NCBI GenBank assembly: GCA_001630475.1
Contig: KV419441.1
Location: forward strand, 143,064 to 207,063
Source: Sistotremastrum niveocremeum HHB9708
Lineage: Eukaryota > Basidiomycota > Agaricomycetes > Sistotremastrales > Sistotremastraceae
DNA: 64,000 nucleotides
Direction of reading: 5' to 3'
In this document: in pieces, positions 15,920 to 63,900 of the stretch
How positions within the stretch are numbered: the first letter of the stretch is position 1
How the letters are laid out: every line of letters begins with the position of its first letter
Position numbers and translations under genes: made by a program
Notes under the pieces: model-generated
The model's database searches: none
The model's input: only the letters and a program-made list of their open reading frames with translations
What the model was told of the DNA's origin: nothing

Positions 15920-15968
15920 GATGGGGTGTGTCGCGCTGCCCGGCCGAGTCAGCGCGGCACACTCCATC
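15920..15968 (-). other. Leader hairpin of family A
   Basis: Nineteen-base arms (15920-15938 and 15950-15968) pair fully if G-U pairs are allowed. The same hairpin occurs in the right arm, at 29928-29977 and at 46302-46353. In the 29.9-kb copy the stem has CTCG facing CGAG where the others have CGCG facing CGCG, a paired change. Confidence 0.7.
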
Positions 15969-16098
15969 CGACCGCACCAAAGGTTGAGGGAAGTCCCCGA
16001 AGGTGCCCAGCCTCACGAACGTCCCATAGAACGACCCTTTGGTGTATTGCCTCGCTGTCGTGAGCTAGCATGCCAGTCGTGGTCCGTCCAACAGGGCC

Positions 16099-16137
16099 CC
16101 AGCTACTACTGAAGCAAGTAGCTTCAGGAGTAGCTGG
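16099..16137 (-). other. Second leader hairpin of family A
   Basis: Arms CCAGCTACTACTGAAGC and GCTTCAGGAGTAGCTGG pair with a single mismatch around a five-base loop. The equivalent place in the other copies has a shorter stem closed by CGAA, with CTGC/GCAG at 30.1 kb and CTAC/GTAG at 46.5 kb. Confidence 0.6.
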
Positions 16138-16510
16138 ACCAAGATGTTAGAGGCGCGACCCGCTGGGAGTTCCGTAGAACAGCGGCCATGTCGACGACCT
16201 AAGCCGTCGACTTGATGAGCGGAGGGAGACAAAGGAAAGGGAGTAGCCGAGATGGGGGCGAGTTTATATAGATGATTTGGACAGTCGAATTTCATGCGCC
16301 AGAGGACTGAGCAGTAGGGGGTTGCGATGGTACAGCCTTGCACTTCAGTGTTCCAAAGGAATAGATTGAGCTGCTTGAAGAGGCGGCAAACGACAGCTAG
16401 AGTGCAGCAGACAGTCCAATTCGTCGAGGGAGCGGAAGCAGGTGAAGTTCGGAGTTTCGGATGTTATGCATCCGTTGCGTCTTCTGGATTCCGTTGCTAC
16501 AGAATATTCT

Positions 16511-16746: not shown

Positions 16747-18430
16747 AGAATATTCTGTAGCAACGGAATCCAGAAGACGCAACGGATGCATAACATCCGA
16801 AACTCCGAACTTCACCCGCTTCCGCTCCCTCGACGAATTGGACTGTCTGCTGCACTCTAGCTGTCGTTTGCCGCCTCTTCAAGCAGCTCAATCTATTCCT
16901 TTGGAACACTGAAGTGCAAGGCTGTACCATCGCAACCCCCTACTGCTCAGTCCTCTGGCGCATGAAATTCGACTGTCCAAATCATCTATATAAACTCGCC
17001 CCCATCTCGGCTACTCCCTTTCCTTTGTCTCCCTCCGCTCATCAAGTCGACGGCTTAGGTCGTCGACATGGCCGCTGTTCTACGGAACTCCCAGCGGGTC
17101 GCGCCTCTAACATCTTGGTCCAGCTACTCCTGAAGCTACTTGCTTCAGTAGTAGCTGGGGCCCTGTTGGACGGACCACGACTGGCATGCTAGCTCACGAC
17201 AGCGAGGCAATACACCAAAGGGTCGTTCTATGGGACGTTCGTGAGGCTGGGCACCTTCGGGGACTTCCCTCAACCTTTGGTGCGGTCGGATGGAGTGTGC
17301 CGCGCTGACTCGGCCGGGCAGCGCGACACACCCCATCGGATTGAGACCTTTCTTCCCATCTTCCTCTCTCATATACAGTCTTGAGTGTGGTTGCTGGGTA
17401 GACACCATCCATCCCATATCCCAAAGCTTCGAGGCTGGCCTCTTCATTTCTACAGAAGGTACGCATTCGAGTCTATCGCCTCGATCTCTACTGATCGTCC
17501 TGCGTCTTTGTTTCAGTCTCGAGAGGGTGTCCAACAAGATGTTCTTCTATTGGAGACGTTCGACGCCGGCCTATGACTGTATGTACAGGTCTATCGCCCT
17601 GGTCTATACAATACTGACCGTCTTTCTCGCAGTTCTCTGCATGCTCTGTTTATCGCCGGCGGCGCAGAATCCGACCGGTATTCCAAGCGCGTCTCCGTCG
17701 GTGCACTTCAGAGCATCGTAGTCTGGTCCGTTCGCGGCCAGATGTGAGAACATGATCCTAGATCTGTGCTTGTTCCTCAGAGGGTACGACGCCGCCCTTC
17801 CAAAAATTCGCATTTCCAACGCGTCCTGTGGGAGCTCCTCCAAGTTGGGTAGCGTTCCTGATCGGGGCTGAAGCTAGCCTCGTATGTGTCACGCAGCTTT
17901 TTTGATGGATGGTGTCAATCAGTTGAACTCGTTGCAGGCGTCAAGGTATGGCGTTTGCGTGTCCACGCTCCTACGTTTTGCTGCAGAGATACAGGCCCGT
18001 TAGCTCCTCTTAGTAAGCCCGATTCACAATTTGACTGCAAGGCCGCTTATTGATTTGTGGATACTGACAAACGACGATAGTAGACCGGAAAGAAGATCGA
18101 GCCATCGCCAAAGTATCATCAGTAGTAGGCACTGTTGAAGTCGACCTCGTAACGATCCAGGCGAGCAGAGCTCTGAAGGGAAGCAAAAAGGGGTCATCAG
18201 GAAGGAATCATGACATCGAGATACACATCATGAACTGATTCTCACGAATACAGCATGCTGATAGCAAGGTGACCGTCCACACCCGGCATCCCGCGATGAA
18301 GACTCTTGTCGTAAACGACAATGTGCTGAATGCGACCCGCCTGAGCAGCGACTTGTAGAAGTTAGCGGGGTCATGCGAAGGAAATATCTCTGATAAACTC
18401 CAGTAGGTGACCAAATTTTCTTCGAATTCA
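16747..18430 (+). repeat. Family A copy, right arm of palindrome (reads rightward)
   Basis: Mirror copy of the left arm. The TATA box is at 16987-16994 and the leader hairpins follow. From about 17645 it diverges from the left arm but keeps homology to it and to the 45-kb gene, for example the block encoding YGVCVST near 17950 (LKCGVCVSES in the 45-kb copy) and NDNVLNAT near 18325 (IQLNVLNAT in the 45-kb copy). The reading frame is degenerate in this distal part. Confidence 0.7.
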
Positions 18431-28415: not shown

Positions 28416-29124
28416 GTTTCAGTAGAGCCTCAGAATATGGGTCTGTTTGGTTTAGATTTTGTTGCATCAGCGCAAGGAGAGCACTCCTAGGTGCATGTAC
28501 TGCGATGAACAGAGGTTGAGATTACTTCCGGCGCTATAGGTGGTACTGCCACGGACGCTCAGTAATTAGTCGCATATGCTTTTACGCTCTCGTTTTGCCT
28601 TCTGTAGCTTATAGTTTTCGTTTCGAGCATGATTTTCGATCAATTTGCGGTTTCTGAATTGCAAAGTGCCCATGTTCTCAGTCGCAGCTCTCATGGATAG
28701 TTGCAGATATCGATACTAAGATGTACACAACAATTCCGTTGAGTCGAGCGCAACGTTTGCAACTCTCGCGAGCTCGATCAGGATATTTGACTGCAGCGTC
28801 CTGCGCCGAACTTCCGCACAAGATGTTCCAAATACAGGACGATATCGTATTCTGCCTATCTTGATCAGGAGGCGATTTCAGCGTCTGCCATGAGAAATCG
28901 CTGTCCAAATGCAACCACGATCACGAGTGACGGGCAAATGTGTACATAGCTATCCCGAAATTCCCCTCGAGATCGAAGGTAAGAGATGTGAAGAGGTAGC
29001 AGTATCCCTCGAGTCTGAGACACCGAATCTCTTTCCTCTGGAGACTGGTATAGGTGCATTCTGACCGAAGGGAATAGTTGCCCCAAAGCAGGAGGTCACC
29101 GCCCGACTCACCAGTTCACCAGCC
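28416..29124. other. No recognisable gene
   Basis: 3' flank of LDB17 followed by unassigned sequence up to the edge of family C copy C2. Confidence 0.4.
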
Positions 29125-29785
29125 AGCAAACGACAAACATACTCTCCCCGAAGGGACAAGATAAGGTCGTTATGAAGCGCGTCCGGCACCCCTGCTGACA
29201 ACAACTCATCGCAACAACCAGCGAACGGTAAACATACTCTCTCCGAAGAGACAAGATAAGGCCGTCATGAAGCGCATCGGGCACCTCTGCTGATTGTGGA
29301 TGAGCTGATAGCTCTGTTTCGAAGAACGAGCGCCTATTACGGGATGACCTTGCGGCCATCACGGGGTGAACATGATGAGAGAACGGGACAAGGAAGAGGA
29401 GCAAGAGCAGCGGGATTATATGGCCAAAAATTCGGTTTTCAATCTCCGGGAGCGTCTGAATCGAGGACATTGTTGAACGCAGTAGCAACGACTCGTTGAA
29501 GCGGAAGAATATATTTGTTGGAGAGGCTAGAAAAGACGAGAATGAGCAAGCCCACGATGACGGGTTTGGGCAGCCTACATGTAGAGCGGCTCGAGGTCGA
29601 CGCCTCTCCGAACTCGCGAATGTAGCCGAAGTCCGGACCCCTTGTTGGTACCGAGTCAACCGAATTTCCAGAGCTATTTCCAGGCAGCCACAACTCGCGA
29701 CCGGTCTCTTTCCCTCCTCCACAGTGAACTTCTCTCTTCAGAATTGGAAGCCTTCTGTTATTCGATGAAGCCGGGCTTGATAGCG

Positions 29786-30613
29786 GAGGCCGTCGCGACT
29801 GACAGATGGAAAGCCCGCCGGACTCAGAGTGCAGCTTCATAGAGGGAAGACGAGTATGGCTCTACCCAAGCACCGCACCCAAGACAGTATATGGGAGGGG
29901 CGAATGGGAAGATAGGTCTCTGCACCCGATGGGGTGTGTCTCGCTGACCGGGCCCAGTCAACGAGACACATCCCATCGGTGCACATCACGGCTGGGGACG
30001 CCCACAGAGGAGGGTACCCATGAACGCTTGCGGCGCACCGTTGATGCTTCCTCGCTGTCATGAGCTCGCGTGCCATTCGTAGTCTGTCTTGCACAGAGTC
30101 CCAGTCCCTGCCGAAGCAGAGACTGCGCTTGCATACTCGACGAGATACGATGGTTGTTCCGAGGAACAGCTGCTGTTTCGACGACCTAAGCCGTCGACTT
30201 GATGAGTGGAGGGAGACGAAGAGAGGAAATAGCCGAGGAGGAGGCAGGATTATATAGACAATTTTGACGCTCGGATTTCGCGGAATAGAGACCTGAGGAC
30301 AAGGGCTCGAAATAGCACAGTATTGCAGTTGAATTGGTACGAGAGTGTCTCGACAGTAGCACCGTAGCAACGTAGAAGTGGTCGCAAGAGTAAAGCAGCG
30401 GAAGCAGAGTCGGACGTTCGGATGTCATTCTGGCTTTGTTCCAATTCTTCCAAGAATTATTCATTTAGCAGCTCGACCGACTCTCTTCAGGCGCTGTTCC
30501 CTTCCATCTGGGGAACTCAAATGAAGTGGTTTCTTCCAGGCTGCTCTTTTCAAGAATTTAACATTCGACTCATTGCGCTGCGAATCTGCCGTTGGGTCAT
30601 AACCACTGCTGCT
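29786..30613 (-). mobile_element. Family A leader segment inserted into family C copy C2
   Basis: The uninterrupted order in C3 is GATAGCGGAGCTTCAATCC. In C2 the same sequence is broken after GATAGCGGAG and resumes with GCGGAGCTGCAATCC, so GCGGAG flanks the insert on both sides like a six-base target duplication. The insert contains the family A hairpins (29928-29977 and 30177-30198), a TATA-like TATATAGA at 30252-30259 read on the opposite strand, and upstream motifs such as CGGAAGCAG. The distal gene part of family A is missing. Whether the ends are true element ends is not shown, because other A copies do not share them. Confidence 0.55.
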
Positions 30614-30723
30614 GCGGAGCTGCAATCCTGAATATCTGTCACATATACCACCAGCGTCGGGTCGGATTGTTCTCCGGTGCTTCGTTCCTGCAGTCATGGT
30701 CGCAAGACCATCCTGTAGGCTCC

Positions 30724-31045
30724 CAGCTCGGTCGGCGTGTCAGGCGCTTTAACAGTTCTCCCGTCTCCTCTCATGTCTTCGCAAGGAGATGTGCGAGGCC
30801 GGGAAACTGACCGTCAGTCTGGTGGAGGCTCCCTGATCTCCAGCTCAAGAGCTCGGTCCGCGTGTCAGGCGCTACAATAGTCTTTCCATACCCACTCGTG
30901 CTTCGGTGCGAGTGGCGGGGGGCTGACCGCTGTCTCTTTTGCTACAGATCAGGCCCAGCTCGGTCCGCGCGTCAGTGCGCCATAACAGTCTACTCATCCC
31001 TCTCGTGTCTTGGGCACGGGAGACGAGTGACTGACCGCTGGCTGG
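30724..31045 (-). repeat. Three tandem hairpin units of family C (array in C2)
   Basis: Units start near 30724, 30850 and 30957 on the plus strand with AGCTCGGTC. The middle unit has a perfect ten-pair stem, CCACTCGTGC and GTGCGAGTGG, closed by a TTCG loop (30892-30915). The spacers match those of C1 in reverse order, so the three-unit array was already formed before the repeat spread. Confidence 0.75.
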
Positions 31046-31365
31046 TGAGTTGAGCTAAGCGAACGCCCCTTGACATTGCAAGATGTCGAGTATTGCCTCA
31101 AAAACTGGGCAAATGCGTGGCCCATGAGGTGTCGGTTTCCGCCGAAGGGTCTATCCGACAGAATTCGGCGAGTGAAGAGAGCGTTGGGGAGACTCGAAGG
31201 AGAGCGTGGCATCTTTCAATAACGGACGCGAGCCATCATGGACGGCGAGCGGTCGTGAGAGAAGTGGGAGCGGAGTGGTCACCGAAGGAGTGACTTTGAT
31301 GAGACAATGCTGTGAGTAATCTGAGTCGATATCTGCCACGAAATAGCAGAATGACCGCTAACCTC

Positions 31366-40189: not shown

Positions 40190-40955
40190 AGGACTGGCTG
40201 AAGCGGATGAATATTTGTTGAAGGAGCAACAAAGAGAGCCGGCATGTGCTAATGCAAGACGACAATTTTGGCTGGCGAGGAGCAGCTTGAGCTTGATGCC
40301 CTATCCGAAATCCCGAATATAGCCGAAGCCCGAGCCCCTTGTTGCTAACGAGGCAGTCGAATTTCCAGGCAGACAGAACTCGCGACCAGTCTCTCTCCCT
40401 CCCCAATAGCAAGCCTGTCATCTCCAGAATTAGGAAGCCTTCTGCTATTCGCTGAAGCTGGGCTTGATAGCGGAGCTTCAATCCTGAATATCTGTCACAT
40501 ATACCACCAGCGTCGGGTCGGATTGTTCTCCGGTGCTTCGTTCCTGCAGTCATGGTCGCAAGACCATCCTGTGGGCTCCCAGCTCGGTCCGCGCGCTAGT
40601 GCGCTCTAACAGTCTCTCATCCCTCTCGTGTCTCGGGCACGGGAGACGAGTGGCTGACCGTCAGTTTGGTGGAGGCTCCCTGTTCTCCAGCTCAAGAGCT
40701 CGGTCCGCGCGCTAGTGCGCTCTAACAGTCTCTCATCCCTCTCGTGTCTTGGGCACGGGAGACGAGTGACTGACCGCTGTCTCTTGTTCTTTAGATCAGG
40801 CCCAGCTCGGTCCGCGCGTTAGTGCGCTCCAACAGTCTCTCATCCCTCTCGTGTCTTGGGCACGGGAGACGAGTGACTGACCGCTGGCTGGAGAGTCGAG
40901 CTAATCGAACGCCCCTTGACATCGCAAGATGCCAAGTCTCGCCTTCAAACTGGGC
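40190..40955 (-). repeat. Family C dispersed repeat, copy C3 (shortened)
   Basis: It matches the middle section and the hairpin array of C1 and C2 but lacks both outer parts. Homology stops near 40190 on the left and soon after AACTGGGCA (about 40955) on the right. The middle section is uninterrupted and so shows the state of the repeat before the insertion seen in C2. Confidence 0.7.
40581..40890 (-). repeat. Three tandem hairpin units of family C (array in C3)
   Basis: Units begin near 40581, 40697 and 40804 with AGCTCGGTCCGCGCG. They are more alike than the units of C1 or C2, for example CTCTCATCCCTCTCGTGTC recurs in all three. Confidence 0.75.
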
Positions 40956-43220
40956 AGCCGACACGTGCGGCGTTTGCCCACCGAGGCTTCTTCCCTCCCT
41001 TAATCACCATCTGCATCCATTGAGGCAGGAAGGATTATTCCGGGTGTTAATCTCATGTTTGTCGCACCCATCGAGAACCCAGCAATTGTGTGCAGACGTT
41101 GTCATTTATAAGCGTCTGAGTCGATGAAGAAGACACGTCCTAACTCCTGAGACCGTACCAGCGATCAGACAGTGGTCAAAGCAAGCGGGAGAAAGGAGCA
41201 AGCGATGGAGCAAGAGTGATCAGCTTGAAAGCGGAGTAGGAGGGCAACCCGCTGTGCGGTTCAGGATAGAATAGATGGCGATAACGAAATCGTCGATGAT
41301 GCGCATTTGAGCTAAAGAGAACCCTGCGAAGGAATTTACAGTTGATATCGCTCTTTCGGTAGTCTGTATGAACGCCAACCTTTGTTACTCAGAGTATAGG
41401 TGGGCTCAACTCGAGTCCAGATATCGGTTGCTCTGAAATGCCTGCGGTTTCTTCCACGGGTTCTGCGTTGGCAAGGTTTAGAGAGTCGTGGAGGCTGATA
41501 GATATGTTCCATGCACGATTGCCATGACACCGAGGTCCGGCAGGGTTTGCAGCGTGTTTCGACGACTGCTTGATTAAATAATCTCGAGGAGTCTGGCGAC
41601 TGAAAGGCTGGAATTCTAAGGGGTTCTCATGAAGTCGGACTAAAGGTCAGTTTATAGACGCACGTACCATAGGAGTGGCACAGTGGCACAGTTTGGTGAA
41701 GTGATATTAGGGGACATTCGTACGATGCACAGCTCATCCAACGAATGAGTGCATATGTATGACCGAGTCTGTCATACACGAGCAGCTGGACATTGTTATA
41801 AGCACGCCGCAGAATAGATTTTTGAGTTCCAGCGAAAAGAGGAGCAAGCCGTGGCGGGCGTGAAGACAGCAATTGAGCAACGCCCGCGTCATTCAGACAT
41901 GACTCAGTCGGACGTTTTAGGAGGCCCAATTCGCGAGGTGCAACACCCCAATCCGCCCGACCAAAGTCCTTAGCATGCTTATCTAAGAATCACTAACCTA
42001 CGACCAAGAGAAAGACTACGGGCTCAACCGACCTTCGGCGAAGCTCAAGGTGTGATCCAAACCGGTCCTTTTATACAAGCTGAGGCGCCAGATTGTGTGG
42101 AAGGCTACCCCGAGCCATCGGCCCCGAGAGATCTGCGGAAGAGCGATGGTTTTCGGCATGAGGGCGGAAAAGATCGTTCCAGACATGTTGTGTGGCGGCT
42201 TGCGAGCCCAAGAGCGCCGCATTTAGAGAGGAGGAACGGCGAAGAGTCAGAACACTGGTGACTATTTGGGAAACGTCGAGAGCCAGACCAGATAGATACA
42301 ACGGTGCCGATGTCGTGACGGTTGTACCATCAAATTGGGGGACGAATGTGATATGCTCTGGAGCATCTGACGCTGAGAAGGAGAGAGCGAAGGGCTCTTT
42401 CAATATCCAGGTCTTTGACACTCCGATCGACTTTGGGAGATACGAGCACACCGGATGGGATGAAGATCTCTCTCTATATACATTTCATCTCGATCAGCCA
42501 GATTGTGGAAAGATTAGACCAGATGGACTCACGCAATCCGCGGTCCCCTCCGACAGTGATTCAGCTCAACATCAAGAAGCTTTGAGATGCCAAAATTGTT
42601 GGGTCCTGAGTGATGAAAGAGAAGCGAACTCTAATAACGTTATATCTGGCGGCATCAAAGGAACACTACAAAGCGTCAGCTCTGTGGACTCGCCGCAAAA
42701 TGAGTTGGAGGCCGACGCACAGGTACTTTTGGCGTGATACATTTAGCTCCATGACACGTTTGAGTGGATTGCGTGGCTTTCCCTCCCATCGTCACCGCAG
42801 TGCTTGTGGAGATGAGATGCAGGTTCTAGGTGTATCACTTGGACTCCGAGGCCACTTATAAAGCGTAACTTCCAGAGCAATACGAGGGGATACATCCAGA
42901 TGCTTCTGACATCAGATATTCTAGACCTGGGACATAAGTCAGCGCAAATCACATTGGACACGAATGAGAAAGAGAATACCGATCTATCGTCAGCCATTGG
43001 TGGAATCACTGGCATGCACGTAGTACCCAACGATGGGAGCGAGACGGACGCGCAATATCGACCTAGATACTGTGTAGGTGTTCGAGAATAGAAGTATCTA
43101 AAGATACGAGAAATACAACTGCTGGAACTTCGTTGTCGTCGTCGTCGTAGAACATAAGTGCTGAGCGCTGGGCAGAAGCTCCGACTCCGAGGCTCTGCTT
43201 AGAATCTCGCGGTCACGACC
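40956..43220. other. Unassigned region with two overlapping candidate frames
   Basis: The longest frames are 181 codons on the plus strand (42192-42737) and 126 codons on the minus strand (42071-42451), which overlap. The minus one reads VTTSAPLYLSGLALDVSQIV and has coding-like composition; the plus one is also Asp/Glu/Ser-balanced. Neither resembles a family I know. At most one is real, and I cannot choose. Confidence 0.25.
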
Positions 43221-44654
43221 ATGTCTTTCAATGACCTCCCTGCAGAAATTTATGGCCATATCATCAAAGATTACGAGACCGAAAACCTCGACCAAAACGT
43301 GTCTGCAAAAAATCGTCTGAAGAGAACGCTCACGCTTTGCCACATGTAAGTCAGGCCGTTCAGGCGACTGGGAGGAGGTTGACCGACGCTGATGTCTTGC
43401 ATCTTCATTAGAACTACGCGGTTCCGACAAGCTGCTCTTGCTCATGATAGTCTTTGGTCAACAATCCATCTTCACTGGCCAAGTGACGCCGTGGACCTAT
43501 ACCTCGCTCATTCTGAACGCCACCGCTTGCGCAACCTTTCTATCTTTCTAGATACTCGAAGTGCAGGAACTCGCAATATGAAGGCTAAACAAGAACGTTG
43601 GGCGTCATTTTTATCGAAAGAGCTGAAGAACACCGCTTCCTTATCTATCAAAATCCAACACAAGCAGGGCAGTCCAGCTCTGGTCGATGCTCTCAATCGA
43701 ACCTCTGCTCCCCGTCTCATTGACCTGGCCGTCGATCTTGACCAGCGAGCACATGACGACTTCGGAATCCGTAGTCTTCTGGCATGCGATGCTCCTCTCT
43801 TAAAAAACGCTCATATCCACGCCAACCTCAACCACAACCTACACGCATTCACCTCCATGAGAAAACTCGTTTTCAGAATCGGGCATCACAATTTCAAGGG
43901 GTTGATGGAGATGCTAGCGAATCTACCGCCTTCTCTGAGAATGCTGCGGCTCAAAGGAGTAGACATTTGGGATGGCCAGCTTTTGCCCAGACCTCCGACG
44001 GTACCCATTTTATTGGATGAATGCACCCACCTTTCTATCGAAGCTGTCGAGGCCCATCGCGTTGATTTCATTCTGTCAAATATTTCCTTCCCTCGTCTCT
44101 CGCGTCTTCAGATCTTCGAAGAAATGGTCGAGATGCAGGATAACACTCTATCACTGTCCATCTTCGGCACTCTTCCCAGACTTGTACCTTCAACAGAACC
44201 GCGGGACTGGTTATATCTAGGATTATTTCCCAAGAGGTTGATCGTGGAGATACAGGGATATCGTTTCCAAAGCGACTGGAAAAAGTTCGAGGTTCTAGAC
44301 CCTCCTTCATTCCAACAAACGATCATTCGTGCCTTCCGTGCTCCGGCAACAACCATTTTCTTTCAACCCCCTTGTTTGACTGTCGAAAATGCCGCTCCCG
44401 CGCACGAACACCCGCATATAACCGCTCTACTGGAAGAAGTTCTACGTACCTATCCATCGACCCAAAGTCTCGAAATGAAGGGAAATGCGACCCCGATTGT
44501 ACAGCTTCTCTGCGATGCCCAGCCCGTGGTTCTGCCCAATTTAGTCGATATCAGGACGACGCCAATGTCTGGGAGCAAACGTGCTACGGAATGCGACCCG
44601 AATTATATTGCAAAGCTCAAGCAAACCAGACAGCTGGAGTTGGTCCGTGATTAG
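43221..44654 (+). CDS. F-box/LRR-like protein, paralog 2
   Basis: Exon 1 (43221-43345) encodes MSFNDLPAEIYGHIIKDYE and is 125 bases, the same length as in paralog 1. The phase-2 intron (GTAAGT...CATTAG) is in the same place. Exon 2 (43412-44654) starts ITTRFRQAALAHDSLWSTIH. The product has about 455 residues. Shared blocks include RTSAPRLIDLAVDLDQ and, near the end, TQSLEMKGNATPIVQLLC, followed by a short tail. It would be an SCF substrate receptor if the F-box is functional. Intact frame. Confidence 0.75.
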
Positions 44655-45133
44655 CCCTTTGTAAGTTCGTCCCTCCTTGTCAGAGCGCATTAATAGGTCA
44701 CCTCCAGAATATTGTTCATATCATCTGTCAAGCAGTCCTCTTCCCATTCGATTACGCCATACTCTTTCGTTTTGCTCCCACTCTTTCAGGTATTGGAGGA
44801 TGATGTGGTGGTGTTATAGTGCGGCTCTTCTAGCAATAAACAGCCATTGTGATAGCCTGAAGCCGGGACTTTTCATTCGTGTCTAAAATTTATCTTGTCC
44901 TAGAAAATTCTGGAAAAGTGATGTTCCAAGCAAAGCTGGTGACTTGTTCGTAGCTACTATGTGTATTTCTTCTCAAAATGATGCAACCGAATATTTCTCG
45001 AGTAGTATCAGCGCCACGTTGAGCCAGTGCGTATTAATATTCTGGGGCCGGCCTTCTGATTTCCGCAGAGCGCTCTTCTTGCTTCGATTTCCGATAATTT
45101 CGATGGAGCTGAATCGAATGCAAACTCAATTCC
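44655..45133. other. Intergenic region
   Basis: 479 bases between the ends of two converging genes, F-box paralog 2 (plus) and the family A gene (minus). Nothing else recognised. Confidence 0.4.
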
Positions 45134-46670
45134 TCATTTTCTCCATCTTCTCCTCCTCAGCATTAACAACCGCTTCAAAGCGTCATTGTATCGCTGCCAC
45201 GACCGAATTGAGTAAATGCCAAAGGCTCCGAGCAGATTCACAAAGCCGGTTGCATTCAGCACATTCAGTTGTATGAATGACCTAAGTGTGCTCATCCTCA
45301 AGTTCATCGTCGAGCGCTGGAAGTGGACAACCATCTTGCTATCGTTTGCTATCGGAAAGCTGTCTGCGTGAATGAATTCATGGTACATATTACGATCGTA
45401 GGGTCATGTTACTTACGAGATGATAATCTTTTGCTATGTCCGTGTGAAAGCACTGCGGGTCGTGAAACCGTTGACATCGGTAGGAGCCTACTCTTGGTGA
45501 GCCGAAAGAAGTGAACCAAGTGGTTGGCGATGGCTCGATCTGTTTTCCGATGCATCCTCGCCTGTATCCCCCGAAGGAAGAATGATGACGCTCGTGGAGG
45601 CAAGTCGTAAATCGCGCCTGAGACCTCAAGGGTCTTCGTCTCTCCAGCACGACATAGAAAGCCGGACTCGGAAACGCAAACGCCACATTTAAGAGCCTGC
45701 AACGAGGTCAGCTCATCGGGACCAACTTTCACAAACGGCGCTTGACATATGAGCATTGATCAATAGCGATCCGGCATTTGTAGGAGCTTGTAGGACACGT
45801 ATGAAAAATGCTGAATCTCGGAGGAGGATCAGTGTAGTCTCTCGAACCAGGCGTTGAGCTGCGCTTCAACGATGATCTAGAGTCTTTGTTATCACTCAGG
45901 TTCTCAGGTTTGATTGCGGACTCACCAGTCTGAGGTGCTAAGAGTTGCATCGACGAGAGAAACGCTTGAAATACTGCTTGTCATCTGTACCGTGGTACTA
46001 CCGCCGGCAACATAGAGCTGCAGGAAATGGGGAGGGGTATTCATTAGTTGCCGATAACGGGAGAATGATGACCTCTTTCGCCTGCCGCTCTCAGAACTAA
46101 AGGTAAGAATAGATAGATCAGTAAGGATTGAGACGATGAACTCGTACACATACATTCACAGATGTACGATGGTGAGGCCGAGGGGAGGCCAGCCTCCAAT
46201 TTCTTGGTAATAGAAGAGGAGACGATGGACTCTACCCAGCAACCGCTCCCAAGACTGGAAATGAGAGGGGAAGACTGGGAAGATAGTAGGTCTCTGTATC
46301 CGATGGGGTGTGTCGCGTCGACCGGGCGCCCAGTCAACGCGACACATCCCATCCGACCACACCAGAGCTGTGACAAGCCTCGCGAGCCTTGCGACCCGAG
46401 AGCGTTCTTCTCACACTAACGCAAGCGACACCCTGGCACTTCCTCGCCGTCATGAGCTCGCGTACCACCCGTCGTCCGTCTCGCTCAGGGTCACAGCCCC
46501 TACCGAAGTAGAAACTGCACCGATAAACTCGACAACACACGAGTGGCTGTTCCGAAGAACAGCTGCTATTTCGACGACCTAAGCCGTCGAAGTGATGGGC
46601 GGAGGGAGACAAAGGAAAGGGAATATCCGAGGCGGGGGCTGGTTGATATAGACGGTGCTGAGGGCTGAGT
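45134..46670 (-). CDS. Family A gene, spliced, function unknown (best-preserved copy)
   Basis: I recognise no known family. The last exon (45363-45134) encodes SKMVVHFQRSTMNLRM and LNATGFVNLLGAFGIYSIRS, ending in RRRRWRK. It joins in frame through a 53-base intron (GTAAGT...CACGCAG) to the exon 45696-45417, which starts LKCGVCVSESGFLCRAGETK. Upstream of that a further exon reading RLVRETTLILLRDSAFFIRV joins in phase 0. The 5' half is less certain: after the TATA box (TATATCA, minus strand, 46644-46650) come leader hairpins (46570-46591, 46302-46353) and frames of unclear start. Related but degenerate sequence forms both palindrome arms at 14.9-18.4 kb. It is divergent from the family B gene. 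A host gene family is my best guess, but a mobile origin is possible. Confidence 0.4.
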
Positions 46671-46979
46671 TTCACAAGCCAGAGACGGGGGCAGAAGAGG
46701 TTGCTAGTGTACAGCCTTGCATTTCAGTGTTCCAAAGGAAGAGCTTGAATTGTTTGAGAATAGCTTGAGTGCTGCAGAAAGCCAAATTCGTCGAAGAGGG
46801 AGCGGAAGCAGGTGTGTGTCGGAGTTTCGGATGTACTCTGTTGCCATGTACTGTAGTGCTTTCGCTCAAATCCTTTCGACAGTCTTTCGACTCGACCGAC
46901 CAGGATCGATACCAGAGTCTTGACAACTCGTCCCCTTCGCCAGTTCGACCGGCCCTCAAGCAATCCATCCCTTATAAGC
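46671..46979. promoter_or_regulatory. Bidirectional promoter region between family A and family B genes
   Basis: About 320 bases separate a leftward TATA (46644-46650) from a rightward TTATAAG (46972-46978). The left part shares GGAGTTTCGGATGT and GGGAGCGGAAGCAGGT with the palindrome arms, and the right part shares CTTTCGACTCGACC and CCAGTTCGACC with the family B copy at 53.4 kb. So each half belongs to its own family. Confidence 0.5.
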
Positions 46980-48455
46980 TTTCCAGCTTCGAACTTTCTC
47001 TTTCTTATCCTGCTTCATCCCCCCATCTCAGAGGGGATGAATATTGGCGAGGAGCAACTGGGGGTGGGAGTTTTCACACCACGGAATCTGGGCAGGCGCC
47101 ATAGAGGTGGGTTATGTGACGGCTCAGACTTCTCAGGCCGCCTCGCTCAGGATCACCCATACTTCTCATTGCGAGTTGGCGACCATTATCGGTGGAAACG
47201 CTGCCTACCTGAGGTCGATGCCTACGGCGTGGAGCCCCCATATCCATGGTTATTTAGACTTGATACCTCCTGGAGTGATCACGAGAGTCAGACTTCGGTT
47301 GTGTCAGATCTAAGTCTCAGGATTGCTTCACATGATACGTGTTGCGCCGCAGAGCGGCGGCGAGTACTTTCTTTCTGTCCTTTCGACTCGCGAAAGGAGA
47401 CTGGATGCGTCGGGTAAGTCCTAGCTTTGACTTTACTAGCTTCGCGATTCTGATGTCACATCTAGTAAATAATACAGCATCGTATGTCCATCTTCACAAA
47501 CGCGTCATGCTCTGTTCGTGACATATACCGTAGGATGGCAGGATGTTTGGAGATGGAAAAGGACGGTGTCCGGCAGACGCCTGTTGCAAGGTAAGATTGT
47601 CGCCGCCCTTACTCGCCTCCATGATTTCAATCCTCCTGTCAGCCACATCGGCACTTTTGTCTTGACCAACATATTATTTTCGCTCTTCAAGATGACTGCA
47701 CTGGAGCCAGGCACCGACGTTCGACCATGAATGTACGTTCAGGATAATATTGACTCACGCCAGAGACTTATAAAGCGTCAGGTCTCGTTTGCAGTGCATA
47801 ATTTCCCAGCTTTAGAACATGCAGTATCCAATTCACAGCAACCACTACTAATAATCGATTTGGAGACTATCGTAGATGAGCTAGAGGAGCGAATGAAGCG
47901 CCACGGTGAGCTCTCAACCTCCCCCCATTCTGTATACAAACGTCCGTCTGAGACTTGCTAGGCTACGCCAAATCACTAATCATCCTCTATGTTAACGAGC
48001 TACAACGGCGCCTCGATGCCGAACTGCCGTGGCCGGAATATGTCTATCATGGCTCACGTCGCTTTTCTCCTTCTTCGCCAGGATCATTTCGTACGATCTT
48101 TCTGTCGATCATATTCTCCGATCATTAATGTTATCCACTCTAGCCTGTCGTACACATGGTAATGAAAAGATTCTCATCCGCACATCCCACTATACCCGAG
48201 CCTTGCTGCAAGATCGCACTGCTCAAAGGTACGTCTGGAGCTTTGACATACAGCTCAGCTACCCATGCCGCCCTCATTTGATAAGGGATATTGTGCGCCA
48301 ATCATGATAGGCGACGAGACTCCCTCTGTCTGTCCGTCGAATTCAATGCCCAAAAAACTATCTCTGACCTGTGGCCTTGCAGGACGACCGTGACCAGTAT
48401 CCTTGCCCATTTCTCAGATACGAGAAAAACCCAGAGATGTATCCTGGCCTACTGA
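46980..48455 (+). CDS. Family B gene, spliced, function unknown
   Basis: Not a family I know. Four 3' exons join with agreeing phases: 47764-47905 (reading LLIIDLETIVDELEERMKRH), 47962-48090 (AKSLIILYVNELQRRLDAEL), 48144-48228 (NEKILIRTSHYTRALLQDRT) and 48311-48455 (TTVTSILAHFSDTRKTQRC, stop TGA). The last could contain one more intron ending in TTGCAG at about 48382. The 5' part is unsettled: after the TATAAG box comes a leader shared with copies at 52.6, 53.4 and 62.5 kb, with a GTAAGTCC donor near 47414 that has a counterpart at 53849. The start codon is not identified. The product would be small, helical and without signal peptide or membrane segment that I can see. Confidence 0.35.
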
Positions 48456-48960
48456 TGAAGGGAAATTTTGCTCGACCAGCGAAATGCAAAGGAGAGGCGA
48501 GGATAAACATATCGCGTCAGTGCTCTGTCACCATCGGAACCTCATGGCGTACATAATATTGACTGTGTTCTCGTTTCTAGTAGTCCCGTTCTCTACTCCT
48601 TCGGCACGTCTTCATGACTATCCGCCGCCCCGTTCCTGCCAGCATCGTCTACAGATACCCGACGACGATGCTGCCATTGATTATAACACTCGACGAACAG
48701 TCGTCTGTCCCTTGTCTCTTACCGAACTGATCGTTCCATCCCTTAGGTTCTTCCACCGATCCCATAGCTGAAAAGAGATGCAGTATGCAGCAGCGATGTT
48801 GATTACGTGTAGATGTTGGAGATACATACAATAGATGTTTGCGTGAGGGTCAAGCATGAACTGAGAACTCACCTGAATGTTCGGTCACGTGATGGCTGTG
48901 ACGCGACGCGTAACAGGGGTCTGTTGTTTGTATGTGTGTACGTGTTTCCTCAAGTCGAAC
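48456..48960. other. Intergenic region upstream of F-box paralog 3
   Basis: No separate gene recognised. Upstream in-frame methionines at 48877 and 48892 would extend paralog 3, but they precede the repeat and look less likely. Confidence 0.35.
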
Positions 48961-49053
48961 ATGGACCTCGACACGGACGACCTCGACACGGACGACCTCG
49001 ACACCGACCTCGACACCGACCTCGACACGGACCTCGACATGGACCTCGACATG
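48961..49053 (+). repeat. 15-base and 12-base tandem codon repeat
   Basis: Repeated GACCTCGACACGGAC and GACCTCGACACC units. The pattern keeps frame and encodes DLDTD/DLDMD. The high GC and regular unit length suggest replication slippage. Confidence 0.85.
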
Positions 49054-50675
49054 GACACAGCGCAACCAGCGACTGTGGCCATCTATCGAGGGTTCTCTGA
49101 TCTGCCGGCCGAGATGATAGATATGATCATCGATTATTCAGACACGCCAGAGCTGCAGAACGACGAACTAGGAAAGAAAAGATTAGCATGGGCCTTCACC
49201 TGGACTCGGATGTGCGTGCTCACTCCTGACAAGTCCTTTTGAATCTTGCTCACGAGTTTTGCAGTAATTCCCATACTAGAGATGTCGCCATCGCGCACCG
49301 AAGTATGTGGTCGACAGTCTACCTGCACCATTCACTCCCCCTCATCGACATGTTCCTCACCCGCTCGCAATACAAAACATTCCACAATCTCGTCGCTTTC
49401 CTTCACACATCAATTTGCAGTAAGAACAACAAGAAACACAAATTGAAGCGATGGACCCAGTTCTTTAAAGAGGATTTGGACAAAATCGTTTCGCTCAAAA
49501 TCCAGATTGACAGCCCCTGGGAGCATCATCCAATGGCTATTGCTTTGCGGCGCACCCCAGCCCCACTCCTGCATACCTTTGGACTCACCCTTGATCACGC
49601 CAGCACAATGCAATTCGACTTCACCTCTCTCTTCAATTCCCAGGCTCCCCTCCTTCAGAGCGCCCTCATTCATACAAATCAGGCCTATGACACGTCCATT
49701 TTACCCTCCCTGGATGATTTTTCTTTACGACTTGGACCCTCAAATTTCAACGTTCTCTTCGATAACCTTGCTGCGAATCCCTTCCTTCAATCGATCTCGC
49801 TCTCAGGGAAGAACTCATGGCCCCAATCCGTGCTCCCTCCTTCTCCAGATCATAGTCTCTCTCTCCCCGAGCTCAAAGTTCTCTCCGTCAAACAAATAAC
49901 CTCCGAAAGAGTACAACATATCATTTCCAATCTCGAACTGCCATCTCTCGATACTCTCATTGTCCAAGAGATAATGGCGCCAGACCCTGAAGACCCTGAA
50001 ACCCCCATGCTCACAGTGTCGGATGCGCTTCCGTCTATCAGCCATCTCGCTGGAGATTGGTTGAGTCTAAGCTTTTCTTCACGCGCATTCTCACTTGAGA
50101 TGGGAGGATATAGCTATGTTACCCGGTGGACAACAGACGATATCCCCATGACCTCGATCGTGGACAGCATTTGCCATGTGTTTCAACTACTGGACCAACA
50201 ACACACTCTAGTTCCCAAGGCTACTCGCCTCACTATTGTCAACAGCATCACTCGACACAACGAAGATGCGAACCCAAGCCCGAGCGATGATTGTCAGGCC
50301 GAGCCTCTCCCTGCCAAAAAGCCGAGGAGACCGGTGCTAGGACCACACATGGATGTCAAGGATCTCGAATACCTCGTTGCTTCTGCATTCAATGCCTTCA
50401 GCTCAGTCGAGACTCTTGAAGTTTGCGGGTTTACAATCCCCGTCATCGATGTTCTTCGTGGGGCTCACTCAGAAGACACTTCCGAAGACTCGGACAACCC
50501 ATCGGACGAGCTTTTCCTTCCCCACTTACAGCACTTAGAGCTTAAATGTACAGTTGGGTGGGATGAGGAACCAAAGTATGATTACGACTCTTTGATCGAT
50601 CTGCTTAACTCGGAGAATCGAGAAGGACTACAGATTTCCGTGCCGCAGACTACCTCCGACCAGCCGTCTTGTTGA
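48961..50675 (+). CDS. F-box/LRR-like protein, paralog 3, with acidic repeat leader
   Basis: Exon 1 (48961-49211) begins with about 31 codons of an Asp-Leu-Asp-Thr repeat, then GFSDLPAEMIDMIIDYSD, the F-box-like opening. The phase-2 intron (GTGCGT...TTGCAG) is at the family position. Exon 2 (49265-50675) starts NSHTRDVAIAHRSMWSTVYL, then has block RRTPAPLLHTFGLTLDH and leucine-rich words such as LELPSLDTLIVQEIM. The C-terminal block SVETLEVCGFTIPVIDVL matches VYSLKVEGYATPVVDVL of paralog 4, so these two are closest. The product has about 553 residues. The acidic leader is absent from the other three and could be a recent slippage product or an upstream region translated only if this start is used. 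Confidence 0.75.
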
Positions 50676-52500: not shown

Positions 52501-52589
52501 GGATATGGGCAGGGAGGATATGATTTCATCCAAGCAACTACCTGTAGTGGCATTAGGTATCGACTGTTCGACTCAGAGGTTGATTGATG

Positions 52590-52824
52590 ATTCACTTGTT
52601 GTGATCTCGAGATTGGCGACATTGCCACAGAAAACGGTCGCTCATCAGCAGGCATGAATATGGGTATCCTGAGCGAGGAGATCTTGGTCTTGGGTGCAGA
52701 AGCCATCCTATTTGTCCACCTCGGCACAATGAAGGCGGATTCCGTGGTAGGGGAACTCCCTACCCCCAATGCTCCTCGCCAGTGTCCACCACCCTCTGAC
52801 ATGGGGGGATGAAGCAGGATGAGA
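52590..52824 (-). repeat. Family B leader, reading leftward, truncated by the gap
   Basis: Inverted match to 53539-53760 with p corresponding to 106363 minus p. It includes the hairpin GGTAGGG/CCCTACC and the block CCAAGACCAAGATCTCCTCG. Identity is high next to the gap and falls off beyond about 52655, where only partial similarity remains. Confidence 0.7.
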
Positions 52825-53409: not shown

Positions 53410-53860
53410 CTTAGTTCCTTTCGACTCGACCAACCACCTTCAATACCACAGCCATGATAACAAGTCCCTTTCACCAGTTCGACCAGCCCTCAAGCAATCG
53501 ATGTTCTATAAGCTTTCCAGCTCCGCCATGTCTCTCTCTCTCATCCTGCTTCATCCCCCCATGTCAGAGGGTGGTGGACACTGGCGAGGAGCATTGGGGG
53601 TAGGGAGTTCCCCTACCACGGAATCCGCCTTCATTGTGCCGAGGTGGACAAATAGGATGGCTTCTGCACCCAAGACCAAGATCTCCTCGCTCAGGATACC
53701 CATATTCATGCCTGCGTCGAGCGACGCCAATTCAAGATCACCACAGGTAAATCTCTGACCTCTATTCTACTAATCCAGTCTCCGGGCTTGACACTTGACC
53801 TGATCTGTTCACGCTGAGTCTAAGCCAATACGTGTCGTGCGGCGGTAAGTTCCTTTCTCC
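53410..53860 (+). repeat. Family B leader, reading rightward
   Basis: It shares with the 47-kb gene CTTTCGACTCGACC, TATAAGCTTTCCAGC (TATAAG at 53507-53512) and the block around CATCCTGCTTCATCCCCCCA. A GTAAGTTCC donor at about 53849 corresponds to the one near 47414. Downstream coding exons comparable to the 47-kb gene are not evident, so this copy is probably incomplete. Confidence 0.65.
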
Positions 53861-58920: not shown

Positions 58921-60454
58921 TTATGGTGTTCGTGTCATAGTCGGGAGCCTAAAGACCTCTTCCCGCTGCGTTTTGAGCGTCGACAGGGATTCCGCGCTGC
59001 AATACGGCTCGTCTGTTGTTCCAGGAGTTGGTCCTATCTGTATAAATGCCAGTTCAGGAAGATAATACTCTTCCCATTCGCTTTCGCTCTCCTCGTTTGT
59101 CTGGACAAGAACATCCACTACCGGCGTGGCGTATCCCTCGACCTTAAGGCTGTATACCGCATCGAACACATGGAAGGTGTAGGCCAAAAGACCCTCGAGG
59201 TCATCGAGATCCATGCTAGGTGCGAGCTTTTTCGGCGGCGCTTTTGTCGATCGGCGAGTTTTTGTCTTTTTGTCGTGAGGAGGAAGAATCTTGTTGACGA
59301 TCGTAAGATGCGTAACGGGAATGTTTTTCTCGTCGTTGGTGGTCCAAACGACATGTATCGCATTGAGTATGCTTTCGAAAATGGAGTCTCGAGTGATCCT
59401 GGAGAGAAGCTCGGCATCGGACCATCCGGTAAGATAATGAAAGCCTTGAACTTCGAGAGCGAAGCAAGTGGGGTAGAAAGTAAATTTGACATGCGAATCC
59501 TTCGGAAGCGATAGACGCGGGAATGTGCTGACGACGGAAAGGAAAGGGACCGTTGGTTGATCTGTGTTTGGCACCATGTTCTCGTGGACGGCGAGGTGGC
59601 GGAGATTTTGGTGTTGAATGTTAGAGACGATGTAATTGGATCGTAGAGAATTGATGTCTTGGATGGCAAGTGATGTACACGAGAGTTGAAAGGGTTTATG
59701 GTCAACGGGAGGAGCTGGGACGGGTGACGAGCGCCATCCTCTCGTTCCTTTGATGGTCAGAGTAACGATGGAAGTAGATTCCGAAAGCCTCTCGAGAGTA
59801 GTTCTAAAGTTATTCGGACCGACACGCATGACGACTTCTTGTAACGACGAGAAGTCTTTGAGCGCACAGGCGTCATCCGTGGCGAGCTCGATTCTTCCAA
59901 GCAGCGGTGCTTGATTGTTAAAGAGACGAGGTTTGTCGATAGGAGATGCTCGCCCGTGATCGTAGATGAGCTCGAGGTGCCGTAGCTTTGGTGCTGGCGT
60001 TCGTGCAAGAGCCTTCGCTAGTTTCCCATTCTCCCAGGCCTCGTCTATGTTGGCTTTAAGGAAGACTATATTCGCCATTTCGTCGGTGAAGAAATTGGTC
60101 CAAGCGATTTGTTTCAGAGCTTTATTTTTCGAGGAGACCGCCCTGGTTTCGAGGTATACTGATAGGTTACGTCGACGAGATCGGTCAAGGAATAGCTGCA
60201 CCATTTCTGGTGACCATTGCAGATGTATTGTTGACCATAATGGTCTGTGGTTGATAGCGATATTTCGGAGGCGGCGATCTCTGGAATGATTGTGAAGTAA
60301 TCTGCCCGATCTTTGCATCATCAAGCACGCACAGCTTAGTCCATAAGATAGCCTTCTCCTTCCTAACTTTTGCAGCTGCGGCCTGGTTCTTTTCAAATGC
60401 GCTCCAGTCCAAGATTATAGTTAAGACCTCGTCCGGGATGCGAGCGAGGGACAT
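58921..60454 (-). CDS. F-box/LRR-like protein, paralog 4
   Basis: Exon 1 (60454-60333) encodes MSLARIPDEVLTIILDWSAF. The phase-2 intron (GTGCGT...TTCCAG) is at the family position. Exon 2 (60280-58921) starts DRRLRNIAINHRPLWSTIHL, then has block ARTPAPKLRHLELIYDH, a basic linker (KKTKTRRSTK) and the C-terminal block VYSLKVEGYATPVVDVLVQT. The product has about 493 residues with an intact frame. An antisense frame of 202 codons (58906-59514) is only its shadow. It is the only one of the four paralogs on the minus strand. Confidence 0.75.
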
Positions 60455-62439: not shown

Positions 62440-62900
62440 CGAATGAATTGCCTGTCAACGACTATCGTCAATCAATCCATGTCCCATAAGCTTTGCAGCT
62501 CCGCGAATCGTCCTTCTCATCCTGCTTCATCCCCCCATGTCAGAGGGAGGTGGACACTGGCGAGGAGCATTGGGGGTGGGAGTTCTCCTACCACAGAATC
62601 CGCCTTAATTGTGCCGAGGTGGTAAAATAGGACGGCTTCTGCACCCAAGACCAAGATCTCCTCGCTCAGGATAACCCGTACTTCTGACTGCAAGTTGGCG
62701 ACCATTATTGGCGGAACCGTTCCAGTTGTAAGGTCCATGCCTACAACGCTCAGCCATCACTTCAAGTTCCATGGCTGTCTAGACCTGACACTTCCTGGAG
62801 TGATCACGAGAGTCAGACTTTGGTCGTGTCAGGTCCCCGTCTCAGAATTGCTATGTCCGATATGTGTTGCCCGCCGAACGGCGGTGAGTGCTTTCTTTCT
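62440..62900 (+). repeat. Family B leader, third rightward copy
   Basis: It shares CATAAGCTTTGCAGCTCCG (at the TATA position, altered to CCATAAG), CATCCTGCTTCATCCCCCCA, GGCGAGGAGCATTGGGGG and the late block CCTGGAGTGATCACGAGAG with the 47- and 53-kb copies. A small hairpin CCGCC/GGCGG (about 62870-62885) equals CGCCGC/GCGGCG in the 47-kb copy. No following coding exons recognised. Confidence 0.65.
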
Positions 62901-63900
62901 CTCCGTTCGACCCAGTTGATAATATTTTCCTCAATTCGTCCCTCGAAACGGGCTCTCGTTCCAGGGGACTCCGCTGCTGAAAGTTTGACGTACTTCATCG
63001 TTCATCCTTGTCTTCTCGTTCTCGTAATATATTGTTGCTTTTAATCTCTCAAAAATTTGATGCTTCGGATTGTCTCGAGCTTGGGCGTCGGCAGGCGATT
63101 GAGAAAGAAAAGAAAACTTGCAGGCTGCGAACGCAGGAGATGATCAAGATGATATCGTGACCTATCGTAAAAGCGATGCAGAGTCAAAAAGAGAGGAGAT
63201 GGGAAGGCTCGACCGCTGAGTTGCTCGATAAGCATAATTGACGAGGATGCCGTAGCAAAATATAGTGTACCCTGTTGTGTACGCCGGACCATAGTCTCTA
63301 CTCTTCGCTGTCAGATGCTCCCCCACAAGCTGCTGACTCGGAAGGCGATATAATTTGACGCCAGATGGTCTCAGATTAGACGGAAGCAGAAATAGCGGAG
63401 CTATAAATAGAACCGGGCCGGCGAGAAGATCGAGACAAGCCTGGGAAAGTGAATGCTTGGCGTCACCAACACTTGCCAACATAGAACTGACATATCCACA
63501 TTTAGCGTCAGTCTGCAAACCAGCAAAGGGGCCCACCCGTATCCTTTCACAATTGAATTTTCTGCTCCAGTCATCGCCAGAAAGCGCTTGGTCGGCCGGG
63601 GAGCACGTACTCGGTTGAGTGGTGGCAGGGCTCTGTTTGCTATGCATTAAGTTGCCCCAAAAGTACCGGAGACTCTGTTCATCATTGTGGCCAACAGGCG
63701 TGCTCTCTTTTTTATTCACATCACATATAATATGCATGAGAAGATCAGCGTGTGATCCCAGTGGTCCTAGATGTAAGAACTAGCAACATTAATCTAGCCC
63801 GAGATTCGCAAACAATGGGGCCCATTGAGACACTCTATGCAAAAAGATCTCGAAAAGACAGCGCAGAGTTGTCCACAACAAGACATCCAGCAGAAACAGA
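62901..63900. other. Unassigned region with one longer minus frame
   Basis: A 191-codon minus-strand frame (63162-63737) includes a hydrophobic stretch (AGPVLFIAPLFLLP) but no recognised domain or start context. An overlapping plus frame of 87 codons exists, so it may be chance. Confidence 0.25.

What the first reader, a model, noticed from the sequence alone, without database searches (positions are those of the whole stretch)
44900..48500. Divergent pair of undescribed spliced genes (families A and B) with shared promoter region
Seen: two multi-exon reading frames point away from each other from one region of about 320 bases with a TATA element on each side. Exon phases agree over one to two introns in A and three in B, and each promoter half is shared with other copies of its own family in this window. 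Inference: A and B are members of multicopy gene families that travel or are maintained as head-to-head modules. No domain is recognised in either, so this is the best candidate here for an undescribed system. Whether the two products act together is open.
Basis: partly seen in the sequence, partly recalled or inferred. Interest (0 to 1): 0.7.

Follow-up and report, generated by a model that had tools for sequence, protein, structure and literature searches.

The report
Paired genes for folded fungal RNAs
What looked like two unknown protein genes reading away from each other are most likely two genes for folded, non-protein-coding RNAs, members of a large and apparently undescribed set of such RNA genes in this genome, whose role is not yet known.

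Summary
The divergent pair is real, but not protein-coding. A (TATA-like element near window 46650, minus) and B (near 46973, plus) leave a 323-bp region. Differences between copies fall evenly over codon positions (A 35/33/40, B 31/34/33; protein control 76/54/140). Both keep RNA secondary structure through compensatory changes (A: 24 double-change cells versus 8.5 shuffled, 0/500; B: 6 changed pairs, 1/500, only three distinct rows).

They belong to a wider set. Families D, E, F and G share with A a 5' hairpin module and/or a 3' module, though not every locus shows both; B shares neither. I tabulated 40 loci on seven contigs. Family G is the strongest test: all 17 loci examined carry two tandem units, and 30 distinct units show 74 double-change cells versus 25.5 shuffled, 0/500. 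Rfam gives nothing above threshold in 123,683 bases. On C48, 16 of 23 RNA genes form divergent pairs under 0.8 kb apart, and many lie tail-to-tail with LRR-type protein genes. Function and expression are untested; only paralogs of one genome could be compared.

The parts
46213..46666 (-). RNA gene A (copy w46): TATA-like element about 46650, transcript (inferred) about 46625 to 46213; contains 5' hairpins, long hairpin and 3' module
   Evidence: alignment A1 and covariation; fold z -5.84; 3' module
46299..46356 (-). long hairpin of A with compensatory changes (9 of 25 pairs change on both sides)
46651..46972 (.). region between the two TATA-like elements (bidirectional promoter, inferred)
   Evidence: A half repeated on C48 and B half at 53418
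46973..47407 (+). RNA gene B (copy w46): TATAAG about 46973, structured domain 47003-47160
   Evidence: alignment A7 and covariation; flat codon-position pattern
62486..62927 (+). RNA gene B copy (element CATAAGC, not a full TATA)
53507..53727 (+). RNA gene B copy (5' part), head-to-head with the next across a run of N (52825-53409)
52577..52824 (-). RNA gene B copy (5' part)
15849..16286 (-). RNA gene A copy, head-to-head with next copy inside a 98% palindrome
16971..17408 (+). RNA gene A copy
29856..30272 (-). RNA gene A copy lying inside the D-E promoter region
1367..1837 (-). RNA gene D with three tandem three-way-junction units (1447-1525, 1552-1634, 1670-1752)
30637..31117 (+). RNA gene D with three units (30725-30814, 30850-30930, 30957-31038)
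40492..40962 (+). RNA gene D with three units (40581-40661, 40697-40777, 40804-40884)
2177..2527 (+). RNA gene E with two tandem units, divergent from D at 1367-1837
29052..29420 (-). RNA gene E with two tandem units
43383..44654 (+). neighbouring protein gene of the P family (LRR type), tail-to-tail with A
48961..50675 (+). P-family protein gene downstream of B (exon 1 48961-about 49210, main exon 49230-50675; exon border inferred)
12957..14351 (+). P-family protein gene tail-to-tail with A at 15849-16286
58921..60414 (-). P-family protein gene, divergent from B at 62486

Best explanation
A and B are two genes for structured, non-coding RNAs, transcribed in opposite directions from one TATA-bearing promoter region. 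A belongs to a superfamily built to one general plan: a TATA-like element, a pyrimidine-rich leader, a 5' hairpin (often with a GNRA loop), one or more folded domains that in D, E, F and G are tandem repeats, and a hairpin-type 3' module; single loci lack one or another of these parts. B is a structured RNA of the same locus type without recognisable shared end modules. Shown by computation: non-coding pattern, conserved secondary structure, shared 5' and 3' modules, multicopy head-to-head arrangement. Inferred: the genes are transcribed from these elements, and the shared ends are handled by one common set of proteins. Proposed function (my bet, about 0.3): the RNAs are stable ribonucleoprotein scaffolds. 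The conserved ends load common factors, while the fast-changing interior domains bind variable partners, possibly the products of the neighbouring LRR-type P genes. Copies are gained, paired and swapped by local duplication. The confidence below refers to the RNA-gene statement, not to the proposed function.
For: Covariation. A (10 of 11 full copies): 95.9% of cells paired versus 37-50% when slid; 12 pairs and 24 cells with double changes, shuffles 6.4 and 8.5, 0/500. B: 97.4% paired, 6 pairs, 1/500. D units (9 of 9): 97.3% paired, 4 pairs, 1/500. E units (8 of 8): 98.3% paired, 3 pairs, 16/500, 5 cells, 1/500. G units (32 aligned of 34 found, 30 distinct): 92.4% paired versus 33-49% slid, 17 pairs and 74 cells versus 10.7 and 25.5, 0/500. 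Alignment folding energy is lower on the strand that the promoter element predicts in 7 of 7 alignments, two of which are sub-regions of others; GU cells outnumber AC cells 105 to 16 in A, D and E (the fold allows GU, which biases this). Fold z-scores: A -5.2 to -5.8, D -3.6 to -6.0, E -3.4 to -3.9, four control stretches -0.1 to +1.2. Windows with z below -3.3 on C48 (60-256 kb): 24 of 56 overlap these loci, which 134 of 1957 windows do. Codon-position pattern flat in A and B, strongly third-position in a P-gene control pair. Tandem spacings such as 98, 107 and 116 nt are not multiples of three. Modules: an HMM of E's 5' end finds F (9.7e-8), one D locus (1.3e-5; the other two 6e-4 and 0.004) and two A copies (1.5e-5, 3.8e-5; others 0.003 or weaker); its best hit in five dinucleotide-shuffled contigs was 0.086. 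A 3'-module HMM trained on A only finds F (2.8e-7), one E locus (2e-5) and G on C48 (3.4e-5). A motif of the D/E hairpin searched over 34.7 Mb gave 8 matches (reversed control 0): 7 known loci plus C59, where the two mismatches are a compensatory pair and lead to a new tandem-domain locus, F.
Against: No transcript data. All alignments are of paralogs from a single genome, so gene conversion and shared ancestry inflate counts. Some measures do not exceed shuffles: further pair types in A (147/500), E whole-length (453/500), E units (500/500) and G (60/500); pairs with double changes in E whole-length, 39/500. B's single-sequence folding is weak (z -2.4 to -0.1), B rests on three distinct rows, and B matches neither end module. 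The copy in the finding, A_w46, was not itself hit by the E-derived 5' HMM; it is tied in through the A family. Promoter elements are not uniform: of 22 loci on C48 checked, A_c110, A_c140, E_c131, E_c140 and B_w62 lack a clear TATA, and a simple TATA pattern preceded the units in only 4 of 17 G loci. The 3' module was not found in D nor in E_w2 or E_w29, was marginal in E_c131 (0.12), and was found in 9 of 17 G loci by an HMM that included one G locus. Antisense strands also fold better than shuffles, and in E_w2 the antisense folds better than the sense (-130.4 versus -124.6). 32 of 56 low-z windows lie outside the loci. The functional proposal has no direct support; the one P gene tested on another contig (C8) has no RNA module in the 2 kb fetched beyond it, and nine P matches on C28 lie far from its only RNA locus.
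Confidence: 0.88

Rival explanations
1. A and B are spliced protein-coding genes of undescribed families.
For: Some open frames exist: 126 aa from ATG in B, 115 aa in A, a 186-aa stop-to-stop frame over B.
Against: Flat codon-position substitutions in A and B against a protein control; ATG not conserved; helices kept by double changes; no Pfam match for the longest B frame.
Confidence: 0.03
2. The units are non-autonomous mobile elements or DNA palindromes whose inverted repeats act at DNA level.
For: The A unit at 29789-30608 sits inside the D-E promoter between GCGGAG repeats, with an uninterrupted site at 40470; large palindromes; G is dispersed on six contigs.
Against: A, B, D and E were found on one contig only, as far as the searches score candidates, which points to local duplication; multi-branched structures with GNRA and UUCG-type loops and GU excess are RNA features; the 6-bp repeat also fits a deletion at microhomology. 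Terminal repeats were not systematically sought.
Confidence: 0.07
3. The RNAs are precursors cut by Dicer into small RNAs that regulate the neighbouring gene families.
For: A has a hairpin of 25 pairs; tail-to-tail neighbours could give antisense; two sub-threshold miRNA-family matches in A copies (E 0.04-0.06).
Against: D, E, F and G are branched with short helices; conserved loops and linear motifs (GGCTC, AAACGACC) are not expected of plain Dicer substrates; the miRNA matches are far below gathering scores.
Confidence: 0.1
4. They are divergent members of a known eukaryotic RNA class (snoRNA, snRNA, SRP, RNase P/MRP, telomerase RNA).
For: Independent RNA genes with conserved ends; non-canonical fungal RNAs are known to be missed by searches (PMC4605306, start of abstract seen in the listing).
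Against: No Rfam match above threshold in 123,683 bases (the G loci outside C48 were not given to Rfam); 40 loci in six families and tandem domains do not fit any of these classes (from general knowledge).
Confidence: 0.07

Closest known systems
Bacterial/phage ornate RNAs ROOL, GOLLD and OLE (PMC12286853, passages read)
   Same: Large RNAs with elaborate conserved secondary structure, unknown or poorly understood function and, for GOLLD, one conserved end with a less conserved remainder.
   Different: Those are bacterial or phage RNAs with their own Rfam profiles; here the host is a eukaryote with tandem repeated domains, head-to-head genes and several paralogous families. Oligomer formation untested.
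Structured RNAs found in Ascomycota (PMC8216456, passages; PMC5640933, passages)
   Same: Computationally found stand-alone fungal RNAs supported by covariation, some with GNRA loops.
   Different: The first screen held only Ascomycota genomes, and its text states that no high-quality Basidiomycota annotation was available; the main text of the second holds neither 'basidiomyc' nor 'tandem'.
Type III toxin-antitoxin RNAs (ToxI of ToxIN; recalled, no call)
   Same: Tandem repeats of a structured RNA unit next to a protein gene.
   Different: Bacterial; the partner is an endoribonuclease. Here the neighbour is of LRR type, and often tail-to-tail rather than co-transcribed.
Box H/ACA and C/D snoRNAs (general knowledge)
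   Same: Hairpin RNAs, often clustered.
   Different: No Rfam match above threshold; units of 75-190 nt with branched helices and GNRA hairpins; box motifs were not sought beyond the Rfam models.

Membership tests
Spliced protein-coding gene family | conserved reading frame with third-position excess of changes | tested here: not met
   A 35/33/40 and B 31/34/33, control 76/54/140
Structured non-coding RNA | helices kept by changes on both sides | tested here: met
Structured non-coding RNA | discrete transcript | not testable with these tools
   no RNA data held
Any Rfam 15 family (4227 models) | score above gathering threshold | tested here: not met
   window: one match at E<=5, far below threshold; seven other loci: two matches at E<=1, both far below threshold
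The superfamily described here | shared 5' module (TATA-like element, leader, hairpin) | tested here: met
   D, E, F and the A family by HMM (A_w46 only through its family); G by the GCAA hairpin and GGCTC motif. B: not met. TATA itself is missing in several loci
The superfamily described here | shared 3' module | tested here: inconclusive
   A (11 of 11 and the fragment), E_c140, F and 9 of 17 G loci yes; B, D, E_w2 and E_w29 no; E_c131 E 0.12
ROOL/GOLLD/OLE | sequence/structure profile match | tested here: not met
   (that these families are in Rfam is from PMC12286853)
Type III toxin-antitoxin | neighbouring ToxN-like endoribonuclease | tested here: not met
   neighbour P family has an LRR-type model with weak matches to NLR, F-box/LRR and internalin structures
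F-box/LRR (for the P neighbours) | Pfam F-box match | tested here: inconclusive
   no F-box match in exon 1 of one P gene; none at the P loci in a genome search with PF12937 that scored 150 of 263 candidates; the model is LRR-like

The most novel reading that the evidence does not exclude
A new class of eukaryotic structured RNA: six families and about 40 genes, most with common ends and interchangeable tandem folded domains, working with the adjacent LRR-type P proteins as paired RNA-protein modules (for example RNA-controlled ubiquitin-ligase adaptors or toxin-antidote pairs) that duplicate and diversify in clusters.
Probability: 0.15. Interest if true: 0.95.

Novelty: categorically new. Interest (0 to 1): 0.78.

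Why it matters
Large multi-domain structured RNAs without known function have been described in bacteria and phages. A multigene set of them in a fungal nuclear genome, with modular ends and interiors, would be a new RNA class, and its many paralogs make structure and binding partners directly testable. It also shows that loci read as 'orphan spliced genes' can be RNA genes.

Tried and rejected
Protein-coding reading of A and B: rejected on codon-position pattern, lack of conserved ATG and structure. Homeodomain or other known divergent protein pairs: considered at the start, not pursued once no coding signal appeared; the longest B frame had no Pfam match. Known RNA families: Rfam on the window and seven further loci, nothing above threshold. 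tRNA/tmRNA genes in the window: none. Phage relatives of A: none. An exact motif of the E/F hairpin in IMG/VR: none. First attempt at counting A's helices used a structure shifted by one column; it is superseded. Local covariance models of D and E units, run on C48 without its first 10 kb, found only the known units at strong scores (9 of 9 and 8 of 8), plus three weak matches at E 1.7-3.2 taken as chance. A structure model of one P protein (mean pLDDT 72.8) gave LRR proteins with low TM-scores (about 0.1-0.4), so only the fold class is used. P and RNA always paired: rejected as universal, because the 2 kb fetched beyond the C8 P gene hold no module and the nine P matches on C28 lie nearly 200 kb or more from its RNA locus. 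The odds given did not need changing.
Full report
WHERE THE WINDOW LIES. The window is bases 143,064-207,063 of contig C48 (256,620 bp) of a 34.7-Mb, 111-contig genome for which no name is given. Content is fungal in style: BRO1/ALIX-type and SPIN90/Ldb17 genes and at least 58 F-box-like matches genome-wide. I take it to be a basidiomycete; that is inference. I fetched all of C48; its first 19,063 bases and window 52,825-53,409 are N.

THE OBSERVATION. Window 46,640-46,985 carries TATA-like elements facing outward at about 46,650 (minus) and 46,973 (plus), 323 bp apart. The A half recurs in 11 full copies and one fragment on C48, the B half in four. DNA searches of the whole genome with the pair and with B alone matched only C48 (such searches score only the best candidates).

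NOT PROTEIN. Comparing one pair of paralogs each, differences per codon position are 35/33/40 in A and 31/34/33 in B, while a P-family protein pair from the same contig gives 76/54/140. The ATG the frames would need is missing in several A copies. Tandem units in related loci repeat at 98, 107 and 116 nt, out of frame.

STRUCTURED RNA. A contains a hairpin at 46,299-46,356 that the ten aligned copies keep: 9 of its 25 pairs change on both sides. Over the seven helices counted, 95.9% of cells pair, against 37-50% when partners are slid, with 24 double-change cells against 8.5 in shuffles (0/500). B's first 160 nt form a closed domain: 97.4% paired, 6 pairs with double changes, 1/500, but from three distinct rows. 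An example: the stem UCACA/UGUGA in B at 47 kb is UCCUA/UAGGA at 62.5 kb. Fold z-scores support A strongly and B weakly. In seven of seven alignments, two of them sub-regions of others, the strand predicted by the promoter element folds better than its complement; as a single sequence E_w2 is an exception.

RELATED GENES. Repeats in the same contig proved to be similar genes. D (three loci) has three tandem three-way-junction units of 79-90 nt. E (four loci) has two tandem units closed by a long terminal helix; in one locus the apical loop has grown an extra hairpin in both units. An HMM built from columns 33-180 of the E alignment finds a locus on another contig, C59 (9.7e-8), a D locus (1.3e-5; the other two 6e-4 and 0.004) and two A copies (1.5e-5 and 3.8e-5; four more between 0.003 and 0.06, c63 and c64 at 2-3, w15, w16 and w46 not listed); the best hit in five shuffled contigs was 0.086. 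The C59 locus (F) was first reached by a 23-base motif whose two mismatches there form a compensatory pair. F runs for about 1 kb with three tandem copies of a hairpin-rich block and ends in a 3' module that A, one E locus and a further locus near 254.6 kb of C48 (G) also carry. F is single-copy by DNA search. G turned out to be dispersed: 31 matching pieces on C48, C84, C42, C73, C97 and C28. Seventeen G loci were examined (two further small pieces were not) and each has exactly two units. Thirty-two units were aligned; 30 are distinct; 48 pairs are 92.4% paired (33-49% when slid), with 74 double-change cells against 25.5 +- 3.9 shuffled, 0/500. One pair occurs as C-G 15, A-U 9, U-A 3 and G-U 2. 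This is the strongest single evidence for RNA structure in the set. A G motif searched genome-wide gave 22 matches with 0 in the reversed control, all at the examined G loci.

COMMON PLAN. TATA-like element; pyrimidine-rich leader; 5' hairpin, with a GCAA or GUAA loop in D, E and F, GCAA in nearly all G units, and a different loop in most A copies; in D, E, F and G, with variants, a linear motif GURGGCUC that opens the first interior helix; tandem domains; a 3' hairpin module of about 60 nt. Not every locus shows every part: five of 22 checked C48 loci lack a clear TATA; a simple TATA pattern precedes the units in 4 of 17 G loci; the 3' module was not found in D, E_w2 or E_w29, was marginal in E_c131 (E 0.12, at the expected place), and was found in 9 of 17 G loci. 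B shares neither end by sequence.

ARRANGEMENT. Forty RNA loci were tabulated by hand from the calls above (11 A, 4 B, 3 D, 4 E, 1 F, 17 G). On C48, 16 of 23 loci form eight divergent pairs less than 0.8 kb apart (three A-A, and one each A-E, D-E, A-D, A-B, B-B); one more such pair, G-G, lies on C97. Distances between promoter elements: A-B 323; D-E 349; A-E about 350 (one side without a TATA); A-A 702, 717 and 795. One A gene lies inside a D-E promoter between two GCGGAG hexamers, while the D locus at 40.5 kb shows the uninterrupted site; insertion with target duplication and deletion at microhomology both fit. P-family genes (LRR type; three window members 23-34% identical to the fourth; 48 matches genome-wide): of the 15 on C48, C59, C84, C73 and C42, 13 are within 2.3 kb of an RNA locus and 9 are tail-to-tail within 2 kb. 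On C48 alone 8 of 9 are within 2.3 kb, against 33.9% of random non-overlapping segments. Against this: nine P matches on C28 lie far from its one RNA locus, 24 matches lie on contigs without a known RNA locus, and one of these, on C8, was read and lacks any RNA module in the 2 kb fetched beyond it. The counts are not independent because of duplications.

HOW IT MOST LIKELY WORKS. Shown: conserved RNA folds, non-coding character, shared modules, paired genes. Inferred: transcription from the promoter elements. Proposed: stable RNA-protein scaffolds with common ends and variable interiors, perhaps partnered with P proteins. I give the RNA-gene statement 0.88 and the functional proposal about 0.3.

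NOVELTY. Rfam 15 gives no match above threshold in the window (64,000 bases) or in seven other loci (59,683 bases). Literature searches listed no paper whose title or abstract start describes such a set; only open-licence PMC text was searched and only the top of each list was shown. PMC8216456 (passages) screened Ascomycota only; PMC5640933 (passages) holds neither 'basidiomyc' nor 'tandem' in its main text; PMC12286853 (passages) covers the bacterial ornate RNAs, the nearest in kind. Limits: one genome, paralogs only, no expression data.

Noticed in passing
C48 and contigs C84, C73, C59, C42: A family of about 430-500 aa LRR-type proteins (48 matches genome-wide) often lies tail-to-tail next to the RNA genes (9 of 15 on these contigs within 2 kb); nine more on C28 do not.
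   Followed up: partly
window 29789-30608 versus 40470-40480: An A gene of about 820 bp sits inside a D-E promoter between GCGGAG repeats, with the uninterrupted site present elsewhere: insertion or microhomology deletion.
   Followed up: partly
window 15564-17693: A 98% identical palindrome (947-nt arms, 236-nt spacer) holds two A genes head-to-head; the arm identity suggests recent conversion.
   Followed up: no
window 52637-53725: Two B copies face each other across a run of N (52825-53409); the partner promoter is hidden in it.
   Followed up: no
window 48190-50832 and C48 209657-212285: A P gene with its upstream region is duplicated (94.9% identical over the first 411 bases).
   Followed up: partly
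window 57094-58413: Tandem duplication of about 660 bp at 72% identity, not identified.
   Followed up: no
G units in L028, L039-L054: Nearly invariant internal loop strands (AAACGACC / GTCGACG) inside the long helix of the aligned G units suggest a protein or tertiary contact site.
   Followed up: no
L023:649-851 (E_c140): Both tandem units carry the same kind of extra apical hairpin, suggesting the two units evolve in concert.
   Followed up: no
C97 (15 kb), C84 (43 kb), C73 (67 kb): Small contigs rich in G RNA genes (3, 5 and 3 loci); possibly chromosome ends or collapsed clusters.
   Followed up: no
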